Positions 25,155 through 30,712 of a stretch of DNA of 64,000 nt are shown here, piece by piece; position 1 is the first letter of the stretch; each line of letters begins with the position of its first letter. The notes under the pieces are model-generated. The model saw only the letters and a list, made by a program, of their open reading frames with translations. It was not told where the DNA came from and ran no database searches. Source of the stretch: Nitrospira sp. KM1 (GTDB taxonomy: Bacteria; Nitrospirota; Nitrospiria; Nitrospirales; Nitrospiraceae); NCBI RefSeq assembly GCF_011405515.1, contig NZ_AP022671.1:806001-870000 (forward strand), written 5' to 3'. A program made the position numbers and the translations under genes.

Positions 25155-25183
25155 TTGGAGCGGGCGATGGGATTTGAACCCAC
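25155..25183 (-). repeat. 29-bp duplicate of tRNA-Gly 3' end (att-like)
   Basis: This is identical over 29 bp to 25325-25353, the CCA-proximal 3' end and T-arm of tRNA-Gly(CCC). Direct repeats of a tRNA 3' end are the normal scar of tyrosine-recombinase integration. The 141 bp between the copies would be what remains of an element on that side. Confidence 0.85.
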
Positions 25184-25292
25184 TTCGTCGCCGGATCGGC
25201 TCTGAAGCACGCCTCCCGGCTCCTGCGGAGGGGGCCAGCCCCCTCGCAGCCTCCCCTCGAAAGGGCTTACCCCTTTCGGAATCCCCTGTCGC

Positions 25293-25309
25293 GGGATTCA
25301 AATCTCATC
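25293..25309 (+). repeat. Inverted T-arm copy
   Basis: The sequence gggattcaaatctcatc is a near-match to the tRNA-Gly T-arm read in the opposite orientation to the genuine gene. With 25155-25183 it forms an imperfect long inverted repeat that encloses two strong hairpins. Confidence 0.5.
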
Positions 25310-25325
25310 AGAATCTTCACCAAAT

Positions 25326-25400
25326 TGGAGCGGGCGATGGGATTTGAACCCACGACAACTAGCTTGGGAAGCTAGGACTCTACCACTGAGCTACGCCCGC
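25326..25400 (-). tRNA. tRNA-Gly(CCC)
   Basis: A complete cloverleaf on the minus strand: acceptor GCGGGCG/CGCCCGC, D-arm GCTCAGTGGTAGAGT, anticodon stem CTAGC/GCTAG with loop TTCCCAA (anticodon CCC, glycine codon GGG), and T-arm GTGGGTTCAAATCCCAT. The CCA end is encoded (25326-25328). It is overlapped by the tail of a broken integrase gene and partly duplicated on both sides, so it has served as an integration site. Confidence 0.96.
25364..25383 (-). repeat. 20-bp att core in the tRNA-Gly anticodon region
   Basis: The sequence ttgggaagctaggactctac, covering the tRNA anticodon loop, 3'-strand of its stem and neighbouring bases, is repeated exactly at 29437-29456. Exact repeats at an anticodon loop fit the crossover core of a phage-type integrase. 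Confidence 0.8.
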
Positions 25401-26460
25401 TCGCGATGAAATTTCGAGCACTTATAGTTTCGGCTCCGGCCGCCACACCCTCAGGTGTTATTAGAGTGTTAGTTTTGTGATTATGAAGCTTCTTGGCCGC
25501 AGCATGCAAGTCGTCCGGCGTAATCGTGTTATACCGGCGATGCATGCGGTCTGACTTATGCCCCACGATCTTCGTGGCTGTTGCTGTATCGACCCCTGCA
25601 CGTCTAAGGTTGGTGCTCGCGGTATGCCGGAAGTCATGAATTTTGAGATTCGTGATACCCGCTCGTCGGCACGCCGCGTTAAAAGCTGTTCCGATCCGCT
25701 TCACCTCTGCACCGTTATACAAGAACACCCTCTGAGTGTCCAGGCGCCGCTCCTTCCACAATTCCGTGAACACTTGATACACGGTGGGAGTCATCGGAAC
25801 CAGGCGCACCTCTCCGTTCTTTGTCTCTCTTAACGTGAACTCCTTGCGGCGCATATCCACGTCTGCCCATTCAAGCCTTAACAACTCCCTTTTCGAGGAC
25901 CCACCTCATACGCCACCGTCAGAAGCCTTCGCAGATGTGGCGCAAGTGTCGCCTTCAGCCGTTCCCATTCCTCAGGGCTCGCGATTCTGTCCCGTTCATT
26001 CTGCGGGTTCGGCTTTGGCACATGTGCAGCAGGATTGTCAGTCACTAGACGAAACTGAGGGCTCCTGGCCACGTTGAACATGTGGGTTAATGCCATGTGG
26101 TCGTGGTTAATGGTCTGAAGCTTAACAGCGTTACCGGCATCAGTCCGCTTCCATCGACACTTCTTGCAAGTCGCGGCATTGACCCACTTCTGACACTTGG
26201 GGCACCGTGTACGTGAATACTGGACACGTTGCGCCCGATAGGCGGTTACATCCTCCGGTGTGATAGCGCCTAGCGCCTTATCCGCAAAGAAATCGGGGAG
26301 ATTTTTGACTGTTTCCAGCGCCAGATACTGCTTCCCCCCTGGCGAAACGTGATGGATTGAGATCGAGCTTTGCGAGGACTCGCGATTTGTCCACTCATCA
26401 GCTTCGTACGAAGGACAGCTTCGTGACGCTTCGCCTCAGTTCTGTTCAGAGATCCCACTT
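25372..26460 (-). pseudogene. Tyrosine-recombinase (phage-type) integrase, two frameshifts
   Basis: Joined in three frames, this reads as a full-length integrase. It has an N-terminal part (VGSLNRTEAKRHEAVLRTKL) and a core-binding part with an unusual four-cysteine insert (CPKCQKWVNAATCKKC). The catalytic domain has Arg near TVAYEVGPRKG, then LKIHDFRHTASTNL, IVGHKSDRMHRRY and the final Tyr. Frameshifts lie at a G6 run near 26337 and at AAAAGGGAG near 25893, where one G seems lost. The 3' end runs into tRNA-Gly. It probably catalysed insertion of the adjoining island and is now inactive. A single sequencing error would not explain two breaks. Confidence 0.88.
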
Positions 26461-26464
26461 TCCA

Positions 26465-26917
26465 AAATTTCCGCCATTATGTCTGAGCGATTGTAGTCAG
26501 TGAAGAGGTACCTCCCTAGACCCCAAGGATTAAATTGCTTCTAAATCAACTTTGAATAAAAATCCGTTCTCATCAATTCTTTGAGTTTCTTCCAGCCCCA
26601 ATCCGAGTCGCGCTTCCAAACGTAATATGCGGCTGGCAATGTGCCTCCAGATAAAATCACGTCTACACGTTGCATAAACCCATGGATTTCAAGTTCCTGT
26701 AACACCGCCGCCGCAAAATTTGCTGACCTGCTGCCACCTCCTGAAATAGCGATTCCGATGAAGGCTTAGGCTTTTCTGTTTCGGCAGATGCCAGCGAATT
26801 ATCCGGTACTTCAATTGTAGAGGGGACAGAGGTGTCACGCAGGATAAAGTCATTAGTGCTGGCATTGGAGTTCAGAAACCGACAGCTGAGTATTCCGCAC
26901 AAGAAAACAAGGATCAT
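26465..26917 (-). pseudogene. Patatin-like phospholipase lipoprotein, frameshifted and truncated
   Basis: A putative lipoprotein signal (MILVFLCGILSC, Cys at position 12) leads into ~40 residues. After a frameshift near 26765 comes an unmistakable patatin N-terminal region: IGIAISGGGSRSANFAAAVL (the GGGxR/K oxyanion motif), then RVDVILSGGTLPAAYYVW, where the G-x-S-x-G nucleophile elbow appears shortened. An in-frame TAG follows MRTDFYSKLI. The frame then resumes with KQFNPWGLGRYLFTDYNRSD and stops at the junction with the integrase remnant near 26465. Three lesions and a missing C-terminal half mean it is not functional. Confidence 0.8.
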
Positions 26918-27246
26918 TGCCAGATTGCCAGTTCTTAATGATGGCTTAGTGATCGACAACTTGGATCGTGTGGAGTAATGCGAGCAACTCGCTTCTCCGG
27001 TGACAATTCGCCGTACCCACAGCTCCTTAACAGTCCGATTCCAAGGATGGTGTATGTACAAAAAGTGGATTTCAGATGATGCGGAGGAGGTAAGCTATGC
27101 ATGAAGAACTTCTGACATCTTCAGTTGGTAGGAGATTAGCATGTAAACAACCTAAGTCCAATCATCAACGGCTGGGGTCATTTTAATGCAATGTTCTTAA
27201 GTGAAATCAATCACTGCCGGGCGGAATGTTGCTAAATCTCAATAAA

Positions 27247-27759
27247 TTATGACGCATTTCGAACCAGATACGAACCAATGTAGTGTGCCCGATAATCCAA
27301 TGATTGGAGCGGATTGACCTCAGTATGCGAATTCGCGGGTCTGGTGATATTAAGGGAAAGATATCTTACAAACCATAAAGGGTCTCCTCCGTTGATTCCA
27401 TAAGACATAATTCTTGAATCAGTGCCACTGCTAGGGGCAGCCAAATATTGTTTGCCATTCATAAGGTCTAGTAACACCTCAATGCCGGTGTGATTCCGTG
27501 AGTCATTGGGTGACGGTAAAAATGCCGGTTCAGTCAGACCTTTGGTTATCCCTGCGTGGCCGTAGAGTACTCCAATGTCGCCACCAATTGCGTAACGGAA
27601 CCCGTGGGTTGTCGTAAACCCTCCGAACCCCGCCAGGACCTCGTTAGCCGATCGATTTGCCGTTGCGGTCAGATTCAGCCACTCCAGATTGGTATCAGTG
27701 TCCAACGTGAGTAGTTGGTCTCCAGTCCCAGGATTAAGATCCTTCTGAATAAGTGACAT
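27247..27759 (-). CDS. Hypothetical protein with LEWL-type exoprotein motif
   Basis: A 170-residue protein with ATG 27759 preceded by GGAGG at good spacing. The N-terminal half (LLTLDTDTNLEWLNLTATAN, then VLAGFGGFTTTHGFRYA) matches a pattern I know from exported PEP-CTERM-type proteins of Proteobacteria and Nitrospirota. Here there is neither a signal peptide nor a C-terminal sorting signal; the chain ends HYIGSYLVRNAS. It is the only intact-looking gene of the decayed island and may be a truncated relative. Its function is unknown. Confidence 0.55.
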   Translation of the reverse strand: MSLIQKDLNPGTGDQLLTLDTDTNLEWLNLTATANRSANEVLAGFGGFTTTHGFRYAIGGDIGVLYGHAGITKGLTEPAFLPSPNDSRNHTGIEVLLDLMNGKQYLAAPSSGTDSRIMSYGINGGDPLWFVRYLSLNITRPANSHTEVNPLQSLDYRAHYIGSYLVRNAS

Positions 27760-27817
27760 GGAATATCCTCCATAGTGAAAAGCGCTTCAGAGCGGGTCAA
27801 GTAATGCACCTGCCAGG

Positions 27818-28233
27818 TTATTCATTTGCTGGACCGCAAAAAGGCTTATTTGAGATACCCGTATATGTGTAGTCGTTCCGTCCATGGCCCGCCTGACAAC
27901 GGACACGTCCCCAAATTGGTTGTGCATATGCTCGCACCATTAAATGCTGACGAAGCATCGGTGTTGTGATTATTCTGCTTCCTCCCTCCAATGCTTTGTT
28001 CAGGCCATTTGTCAGACCATCCGAGAGCCCAGCTGCTAGGCCTCTACTAAGGGTCTGTCAAAACTCATCGCCCCTGTCACAGCACGACTTTTCCACCTCA
28101 TCTTTGTCGTAACCTTGCTTGTCTAGCTCAATGCGCCGTTCAATAGTACAGCCGCTCCAGGCATCCGAGTCGACAAGCACCAAGCCGGGACGATCAGGCT
28201 ACACAATGTGATAACAGCCATAGCATGTTTCAT
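27818..28233 (-). pseudogene. Small exported protein, frameshift plus in-frame TGA
   Basis: ATG 28233 has AAGGAGG five bases upstream and starts a signal-like segment (MKHAMAVITLCSLIVPAWCL). In the present frame it stops after 36 residues. One base shift near 28177 opens DAWSGCTIERRIELDKQGYD ... SCCDRGDEF, then a TGA (28058-28060). The same frame then stays open for 79 more codons (QTLSRGLAAGLSDGLTNGLN ... GISNKPFCGPANE) to TAA at 27818. I interpret it as a ~140-residue cysteine-containing exported protein broken by two lesions. No family was recognised. Confidence 0.45.
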
Positions 28234-29436
28234 CGTAACCTCCTTCAGAGTGGTGATTGAACTTTCACGTTCAATCCCTACGGCCAGAGATTCTTCAACA
28301 TTACGAGTGCAGATCCCGCGCCCAATCGCACTGTGAGGACGAGCACTGAATCGAAGAAGCTTCTCATGGTTTTATTCCGTTTGTGTCCTGGTAAGACTCC
28401 ATAATCTGCAACTGCTGGACCAGTGGCGTACAAAACATGTTTCAAAATTTGAAAGAAGCTATATCAACGGTTTCAATGGTGAAGGTCGAGTAGGAATGTA
28501 CGAGACACCGCCATGGTTGTTGAAGGTGGCCCGTAACCTGCTGGGATCACAATCGATACACCCGATACAAATAGATACGCCGGAGCAGGTCGCTTAAATT
28601 GCACTGATTAGGTTAATAGTCGGTACTTCTAACCAGACTTCAGAGCAAGCACTTCTGTTTTTAACTGTTTTTGTCCTCGTGACGCATTTCGATATAGGAC
28701 CGTTCGATTGGAGGCATCAGCGTCTGCCCTTGAGAGTAGGTATTGTACAGTGTTAGAAGACCAACAAGTCGGAGTGGCCGCCCGTCACTGCTTATTATGG
28801 AGATCAAAACTGGCTATAAAGAGGTTATCCAAAACGCACGCGTCTCATGAATGGATTCCAGATCGGTGTAGTTCAACCTCGTCCATGGTTAAACCATCCG
28901 ATTGAACCGGACTATGAAGCCGTCTCTTTTGTAATTCCGTCCATTGCGTTTCCCTGGTTCCCATTCGCCTTTGGGTTCCCATTTAATAGTTTGCAGATAC
29001 GACCAAGTGGAGCTGGGAATGGCTCATCCGACTACATTCTTTTCGCCAATATGTGGCTCCACTATCCGCAGACATGATCACAGCAGGTGTCCGAGCATTT
29101 CCAAATTGCATAAACGATCAACACCGTGGCTTGCCATGAGCTCTTCATAGGTGCTCCATATAGTCTCACACTGCACATTCTTTAAGGTGACCTATACCAT
29201 TTAAGACATGGGCAGCCACAAGGGTGCCCGTGGCGTGCACCCAACGTCTGGTCGTGGTCCGAGGTGCAAAACGAGGTGTCGATCAGGTGTTATTACAGTG
29301 TTAGGAAGTACACTAAAGTGTGGTGAATTGCAGTTACTGGATGCTACTAGAAACGAAGGAGTAAAACGCAGAATCCTCACTAACGACAAGGGATTGCCTA
29401 CGCCATCAAAGGCTTAAGCAATCCCCCTAGGTAAGA
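28234..29436. other. Gene-poor, AT-richer remainder of the island
   Basis: About 1.2 kb contains no frame with convincing start, ribosome-binding site and protein character. A plus-strand frame at 28337-28597 is open for 86 codons but lacks an early start. The gaps at 26918-27246 and 27760-27817 are likewise without supportable genes. Base composition looks lower in GC than the flanking core genes. Confidence 0.6.
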
Positions 29437-29471
29437 TTGGGAAGCTAGGACTCTACGAGTCCTACGCCGGC
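29437..29471 (-). repeat. Remnant of tRNA-Gly 5' half (far att site)
   Basis: The exact 20-bp core ttgggaagctaggactctac is followed by gagtcctacgccggc, a decayed version of the D-arm and acceptor 5' strand of tRNA-Gly (25384-25400). It marks the distal edge of the ~4.1 kb element, directly before tyrS. Confidence 0.8.
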
Positions 29472-29500: not shown

Positions 29501-30712
29501 CTAGGGCGCCAATTGTACAAGCGCAAACTTCCGTCGTCCGACTTTCAGCTGATACGATCGCCCGGCTGCCAATGCAATGAGCATGTTGGCATCGGTCTGT
29601 TTTTGGCCGTCGACTTCCAGTCCACCCTGAATGATCAGCCGCCGGGCTTCGCTCTTACTGGGAACCAGTCCGGTCCTCGCGACCAGATCTGCCAGTCCGA
29701 TGGATCCGTCGGGTTTGACATCCGCCGGATGTAAGATGACGGTGGCATCCGGCTCACTGGGAAATTCACGCTCCCGGAATTTCTGTTGAAATTCCTCGCG
29801 AGCGTTCTTCCCCGCTTCCGCTCCGTGATAGCGTTCGACGAGCATCTGGGCCAGGGACTGCTTTGCCTCCATGGGATGAAGGTTCTTGACCGCTGCAAGG
29901 TCTTCCGTCGTCAGCAACTCGTAATACCGAACCATGAGCTCATCGCTGATGGACATGACCTTTCCGAACATGTTGCCGGGCGCATCTTCCAATGCAATGT
30001 AGTTTCCAAGGCTCTTGCTCATTTTCCTCACGCCGTCGAGTCCTTCAAGCAATGGCATCGTAATGACGACCTGTGGTTCCTGGCCATAATCCCGCTGCAA
30101 ATCACGGCCAACGAGCAGGTTGAATTTCTGATCCGTACCTCCCAGTTCCACGTCGGCCTTTAGCGCAACTGAGTCGTATCCCTGTACCAGAGGATAGAGA
30201 AACTCGTGAACGCTGATCGGCTTTTGATCCCGGAATCGATTCTGAAAATCGTCCCGTTCCATCATACGCGCAACTCTGTAGTGCGCCGATAGCTGAATGA
30301 TCCCTTCCGCCGTCATGGGAGTCATCCATGTGCTATTGAATTCGATCACGGTCTTCGCAGGATCGAGGACTTTGAAAATCTGTCGCTCATAGGTTTTTGC
30401 GTTCTCCTGCACCTGTTCTTTTGTCAGCGCCTTTCTGGTTTCCGAGACGCCTGTGGGATCACCGATGAGCCCGGTGAAGTCTCCGATCAGGAACATCACA
30501 TGATGGCCCAGATCCTGAAAATGCTTGAGCTTATGAATGAGAACGGTGTGCCCCAGATGAAGATCCGGAGCGGTCGGATCGAAGCCGGCTTTGACACGCA
30601 GTGGTCGCTGTTCTTTGATCGCACGCGTGAGTTTCGATTCCAATTCGGCATGATGAATGATTTCAACAGTGCCGCGGCGGATCAGATCCAATTGGCGTGC
30701 CAATTCGCTCAT
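29501..30712 (-). CDS. tyrS: Tyrosyl-tRNA synthetase
   Basis: A 403-residue class I synthetase charging tRNA-Tyr. It has the HIGH-type signature HLGH in [20 protein letters not shown] in [11 protein letters not shown], and a C-terminal S4-like RNA-binding domain ([18 protein letters not shown]). It starts ATG at 30712, overlapping the comEA-like stop by 4 bp. The 3' end lies only 30 bp from the scar of the tRNA-Gly element, so the element inserted just downstream of this gene. Confidence 0.97.

What the first reader, a model, noticed from the sequence alone, without database searches (positions are those of the whole stretch)
25329..29471. A ~4.1 kb decayed element inserted at the anticodon loop of tRNA-Gly(CCC)
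Exact 20-bp copies of the anticodon segment occur inside the intact tRNA (25364-25383) and at 29437-29456. The latter is followed by a mutated copy of the D-arm/acceptor 5' strand. The integrase pseudogene lies next to the tRNA side. This implies the present 5' half of the tRNA came with the element, while the original half decays next to tyrS.
Basis: partly seen in the sequence, partly recalled or inferred. Interest (0 to 1): 0.6.

Follow-up and report, generated by a model that had tools for sequence, protein, structure and literature searches.

The report
Dead tRNA-splitting island in Nitrospira
A decayed 4.1-kb mobile element once cut a glycine tRNA gene at its anticodon loop and replaced the front half with its own copy; relatives show that it belongs to an integrase family of Nitrospira and its allies that mostly works this unusual way round, replacing the 5' half of tRNA genes.

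Summary
Confirmed and generalised. The 20-bp repeat is real (25364-25383 = 29437-29456; nt 18-37 of tRNA-Gly(CCC), ending at the end of the anticodon loop). In 91 of 130 scored Nitrospiraceae tyrS genes, an intact tRNA-Gly(CCC) follows tyrS directly (empty site). Twenty genomes, this one included, have 0.8-44 kb between them; several keep a displaced 5' half beside tyrS, exact to nt 39/40 in the fresh ones. The integrase pseudogene (25372-26470) belongs to a Nitrospirota family: 45 of 57 tree members sit directly 5' of a tRNA (Gly, Pro, Arg, Thr) on the same strand; six sit on the 3' side in reverse. Elements carry an AACAC-N6-AACAC motif about 70 bp before the tRNA, inside the integrase coding region, and again about 133 bp inside the other end. 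The strict motif occurs exactly twice in the window, at these two places. So this is a dead, lambda-like (arm + core) integrative element in reversed orientation. 5'-fragment tRNA islands are known but rare (159 of 3919 in Islander). Supply of a tRNA promoter by the element is inferred, not shown.

The parts
25326..25400 (-). tRNA-Gly(CCC), regenerated; nt 1 to about 37 came with the element, the rest is original chromosome
   Evidence: empty sites in relatives
25364..25370 (-). anticodon loop (nt 31-37) = inferred crossover/overlap region at the tRNA end
   Evidence: end of the exact repeat; displaced 5' halves of relatives end at nt 39-42 and displaced 3' halves of 3'-side relatives start at nt 32
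25372..26470 (-). tyrosine integrase pseudogene (frameshifts near 25890 and 26333; about 33 N-terminal residues not found); its frame ends in TAG formed by tRNA nt 27-29 (...SGRSSVVES*)
25455..25470 (-). right arm-type site AACACTCTAATAACAC, inside the integrase codons for NTLIT
26471..29286 (.). degraded interior, 47% G+C (window mean 56%), no recognisable gene
29287..29302 (-). left arm-type site AACACTGTAATAACAC
29390..29427 (.). inverted repeat GGGATTGC..GGCAATCCC just inside the element's left end; similar hairpins in relatives, terminator-like by appearance only
29437..29471 (-). displaced original 5' half of tRNA-Gly(CCC), decayed; the D-arm is replaced by a perfect inverted repeat (29447-29463)
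29501..30712 (-). tyrS, the chromosomal gene that precedes tRNA-Gly(CCC) in relatives

Best explanation
A small integrative element with a lambda-like tyrosine integrase inserted into tRNA-Gly(CCC) by recombination in the 7-nt anticodon loop. Its attP carried a copy of the tRNA's 5' half next to the 3' end of its integrase gene, so the tRNA was rebuilt at the integrase end and the old 5' half was pushed about 4.1 kb away to the tyrS side. Two arm-type sites (AACAC-N6-AACAC) flank the core at fixed distances, one of them inside the integrase coding sequence. The integrase has since decayed and the element is stuck. Shown: layout, empty site, recurrence in relatives, family membership of the integrase, fixed arm-like repeats. 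Inferred: that the AACAC sites bind the integrase, the exact crossover bases, and that the tRNA is now transcribed from within the element.
For: Exact 20-bp repeat. tyrS to tRNA-Gly(CCC) distance of 57-300 nt, same strand, in 91 of 130 tyrS scored; 0.8-44 kb, same strand, in 20 genomes. Displaced 5' halves beside tyrS in G102, G107, G084, G019, G114, G017 and G150, and tandem insertions in G017 and G153. Same arrangement at tRNA-Arg(TCT) and Arg(CCT) with exact 41-42 nt displaced 5' halves. Integrase family directly 5' of tRNA-Pro, Gly, Arg and Thr (tree: window integrase in a 99/92 clade of Gly(CCC) integrases). Arm motif 67-79 bp before the tRNA in 46 of 50 5'-side loci, against about 1% of background 100-mers, and 130-135 bp inside the left end of 11 of 11 elements; exactly two strict copies in the window.
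Against: The window's displaced half is mutated, so its outer end rests on alignment rather than identity. Several relatives' gaps (for example G007, G129, G145) show no recognisable displaced half, so not every gap is proven to be such an insertion. No excision, binding or transcription data. A general search for a sigma70-like promoter before the tRNA was not significant.
Confidence: 0.94

Rival explanations
1. Tandem duplication of tRNA-Gly(CCC): the tyrS-side copy decayed and unrelated DNA drifted or inserted between the two copies.
For: A second partial tRNA copy is present; tandem tRNA genes occur, for example two tRNA-Gly(CCC) copies in G009.
Against: Displaced copies in relatives stop sharply at nt 39-42 instead of continuing as full tRNAs. 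An integrase of one family is at the tRNA end, and paired arm-like repeats sit at fixed offsets from both tRNA pieces.
Confidence: 0.03
2. A canonical 3'-side tRNA island (displaced 3' half) with later rearrangement.
For: The commonest kind of tRNA island; the same integrase family also has 3'-side members, one of them in this genome at tRNA-Thr(CGT). A 28-nt copy of the tRNA 3' end lies at 25156-25183.
Against: The displaced piece at 29437-29471 is from the 5' half, in direct orientation, upstream of the tRNA. The 3'-end copy belongs to a separate short noncoding element found after many tRNAs.
Confidence: 0.01
3. Chance match or a gene-conversion tract, with no insertion event.
For: The repeat is short and its outer part is mutated.
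Against: An exact 20-mer in a 64-kb window is not expected by chance, its position coincides with the empty-site tRNA position in relatives, and the only two strict arm motifs of the window lie at the predicted places.
Confidence: 0.01

Closest known systems
tRNA-gene genomic islands with a displaced 5' tDNA fragment, anticodon-type attP (Islander database, PMC4383910: 159 of 3919 islands have a 5' fragment; 2083 are anticodon type)
   Same: Regenerated tRNA at one end, displaced 5' fragment at the other in the same orientation, tyrosine integrase inside, crossover in the anticodon loop.
   Different: Here this orientation predominates in one integrase family of one bacterial lineage; the integrase frame can end inside the regenerated tRNA and one arm-like site lies in integrase codons. 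The window copy is dead, and its internal-only BLAST hit (nt 18-37) would probably be rejected by Islander's internal-fragment filter.
Archaeal pTN3-like integrases (PMC8371274)
   Same: attB is the 5' half of a tRNA gene, and the rebuilt tRNA lies behind integrase sequence.
   Different: In pTN3-like (suicidal) elements integration splits the integrase gene. Here the crossover lies after the integrase stop codon, so the gene stays whole. Sequence kinship was not compared.
Lambda-type tyrosine integrases with arm- and core-type sites
   Same: Core flanked on both sides by repeated short motifs at fixed distances; PF00589 catalytic domain.
   Different: Arm binding is only inferred here; the arm motif is AACAC-N6-AACAC; one arm lies in integrase coding sequence.

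Membership tests
tRNA genomic island, 5'-fragment type | complete tRNA gene at one end | tested here: met
tRNA genomic island, 5'-fragment type | displaced terminal fragment of the same tRNA at the other end, same orientation, on the correct side | tested here: met
   the outer 15 nt are mutated
tRNA genomic island, 5'-fragment type | tyrosine integrase gene within the island | tested here: met
   (pseudogene)
tRNA genomic island, 5'-fragment type | uninterrupted site in relatives | tested here: met
tRNA genomic island, 5'-fragment type | excision to a circle with attP | not testable with these tools
   needs bench work on an intact relative
pTN3-like suicidal integrases | attachment site inside the integrase gene, so that integration splits it | tested here: not met
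   the stop codon is at or before tRNA nt 27-29 and the crossover in the loop at nt 31-37
lambda-type integrases with arm sites | repeated sites on both sides of the core at fixed distances | tested here: met
lambda-type integrases with arm sites | binding of those sites by the integrase N-terminal domain | not testable with these tools
   no binding data

The most novel reading that the evidence does not exclude
A Nitrospirota integrase family has turned the usual tRNA island round: by replacing the 5' half it also cuts the tRNA from its native upstream DNA (tyrS), so the host's only tRNA-Gly(CCC) gene becomes a tail of the integrase transcript or of a promoter within the integrase 3' end. 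The host then depends on retained integrase DNA even after the integrase protein dies, which would explain why the integrase end is the best-kept part of this dead element.
Probability: 0.25. Interest if true: 0.7.

Novelty: new variant of a known kind. Interest (0 to 1): 0.5.

Why it matters
Most tRNA islands spare the tRNA promoter by replacing the 3' half. A lineage whose integrases mostly do the opposite, with 3'-side relatives in the same tree, makes two questions testable: what sets the orientation, and how a tRNA survives losing its upstream region. The arm motif and the displaced halves also give a practical way to map such islands, including dead ones, in Nitrospira and its allies.

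Tried and rejected
Tandem duplication, a 3'-side island and chance were considered and rejected (see rivals). Promoter scan of the 100 bp before the tRNA in 50 5'-side loci: mean best score 6.6 against 6.1 in shuffles (Wilcoxon p 0.32), so a general element-borne promoter is not shown, although CTTGC-type Gly elements and some Arg(CCT) elements have good candidates (TTGCAC-17-TAATAT, TTGACC-17-TAAAAG). Codon test for the arm site: incomplete; eight clade-A integrases all read AAC ACN NTA ATA ACA CCT there, but the script missed the others, and no test against background codon use was done. Pfam, PHROGs and Rfam found no gene or RNA in the element interior. No relative of the integrase in viral contigs. 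Williams 2002 could not be read.

Full report
Observation. The minus-strand tRNA-Gly(CCC) at 25326-25400 is intact. Nucleotides 18-37 recur exactly at 29437-29456 and nowhere else in the window. The outer part of the copy, to 29471, is mutated; part of the D-arm has become the mirror of the following GAGTCCT, leaving the perfect inverted repeat 29447-29463. tyrS ends at 29501, 29 nt away.

Empty site. In relatives tyrS is followed on the same strand by tRNA-Gly(CCC). Across 147 genomes of the family, pairing the two genes gave 91 close pairs (57-300 nt, most under 100) among 130 tyrS genes scored; 20 genomes, this one included, have 0.8-44 kb between them on the same strand; one has the tRNA in the opposite orientation; the rest lie on different contigs or lack a scored tRNA. 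The tRNA is thus native to the tyrS side, and the spacing is what varies.

Other elements at the same site. In G102, G107, G084, G019, G114, G017 and G150 a 5' half of the tRNA is found just after tyrS; in the fresh ones it is exact to nt 39 or 40 and then stops, and the complete tRNA is at the far end or on another contig. G017 and G153 hold tandem insertions marked by an exact 40-nt copy. The gaps differ widely in size and content, so these are repeated insertions rather than one inherited event (inference).

Integrase. The window pseudogene (25372-26470) matches integrases of 377-417 aa of G017, G153, G107, G084 and G019 (PF00589). In G017, G153, G114 and the window the reading frame runs into the tRNA and stops at TAG, tRNA nt 27-29. 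Where the tRNA stem reads CTTGC instead of CTAGC (G102, G107, G084, G019) that TAG is absent and the integrase stops 11-30 nt before the tRNA. The crossover lies after either stop, so the gene stays whole whether integrated or excised.

Family. A scan of genome contigs found 55 loci; those above about 40% identity are Nitrospira or other Nitrospirota, apart from one contig filed under Nitrosospira. In most the integrase ends within 30 nt of a same-strand tRNA: Pro(TGG), Gly(CCC), Arg(TCT), Arg(CCT), once Thr(TGT). For Arg targets, exact displaced 5' halves of 41-42 nt were found 7-19 kb away (G019, G079, G001). Six tree members lie on the 3' side in the opposite orientation; two of those loci, including one in this genome at tRNA-Thr(CGT), show exact displaced 3' halves starting at nt 32. 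The 5'-side and 3'-side repeats overlap only around the anticodon loop, which places the crossover there. In the tree the side label is clustered but changes several times.

Arm-type sites. Comparing the two ends of eleven elements gave a second direct repeat in ten of them, AACAC-N6-AACAC or a close variant. The motif lies 67-79 bp before the tRNA in 46 of 50 5'-side loci, inside the last codons of the integrase, and 130-135 bp inside the left end in all eleven elements; most 3'-side relatives have it at a like place in the integrase. The window's two strict copies are at 25455-25470 and 29287-29302. This fits a lambda-like attP. Binding is not shown.

State of the element. G+C is 49% against 56% for the window. 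Apart from the integrase end and the left end, no part resembles the relatives' elements or, for the ORFs tested, any Pfam or PHROG family. Compact intact relatives carry an AAA_25 ATPase, an HTH regulator or a resolvase, and no relative of the integrase was found in viral contigs, so small non-viral integrative elements are likely, but cargo was only sampled.

Comparison. 5'-fragment islands are a known minority: 159 of 3919 in Islander (PMC4383910). Archaeal pTN3-like integrases also use the 5' half, with the tRNA then expressed from the integrase promoter, a situation described as seldom met in bacteria (PMC8371274). I found no paper on this in Nitrospira in the library searched, which is not proof of absence. 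I therefore rate the window copy as an ordinary dead member, and the family-wide 5' habit with integrase-tRNA overlap as a new variant of a known kind.

Noticed in passing
window 25156-25325; also L171, L172, L173 and L177-L219: A short noncoding element (about 145 nt, core GATTTCGAAAGGGGTGxGCCCCTTTCGTGGGG) sits directly downstream of many different tRNAs (Gly CCC/TCC/GCC, Ala GGC/CGC, Asp, Thr TGT/CGT) in Nitrospiria. Each copy ends with a usually exact 25-nt copy of its own tRNA's T-loop-to-CCA end and begins with an inverted copy of part of that tRNA's T-arm; four copies in this genome, three in tandem after tRNA-Gly(GCC) in G029, a few copies without a tRNA. No Rfam match at E<1. How each copy matches its own tRNA is unexplained: target-duplicating insertion, cassette-like recombination at GGTTCAA, or gene conversion.
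   Followed up: partly
G000:C1 about 3221 kb (L150): The window's genome has a second member of this integrase family, on the 3' side of tRNA-Thr(CGT), with an exact displaced 3' half (nt 32-76) about 10.6 kb away and the same arm motif.
   Followed up: partly
L002, L041, L055-L059 downstream of tRNA-Gly(CCC): Another repeat-like sequence (AACCAAGCTTGCTTGAGCCG...CGGCGGATA, inverted-repeat rich) follows many Nitrospira tRNA genes.
   Followed up: no
L041 2214-4883 and L042 10062-14273: The same large helicase-like ORF occupies the tyrS-tRNA-Gly gap in two genera (G007, G017), in G017 interrupted by ORFs that look like IS transposases (by eye, no domain search).
   Followed up: no
window 29447-29463: The decayed D-arm of the displaced half has become a perfect 7-bp inverted repeat, as after a template switch.
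   Followed up: no
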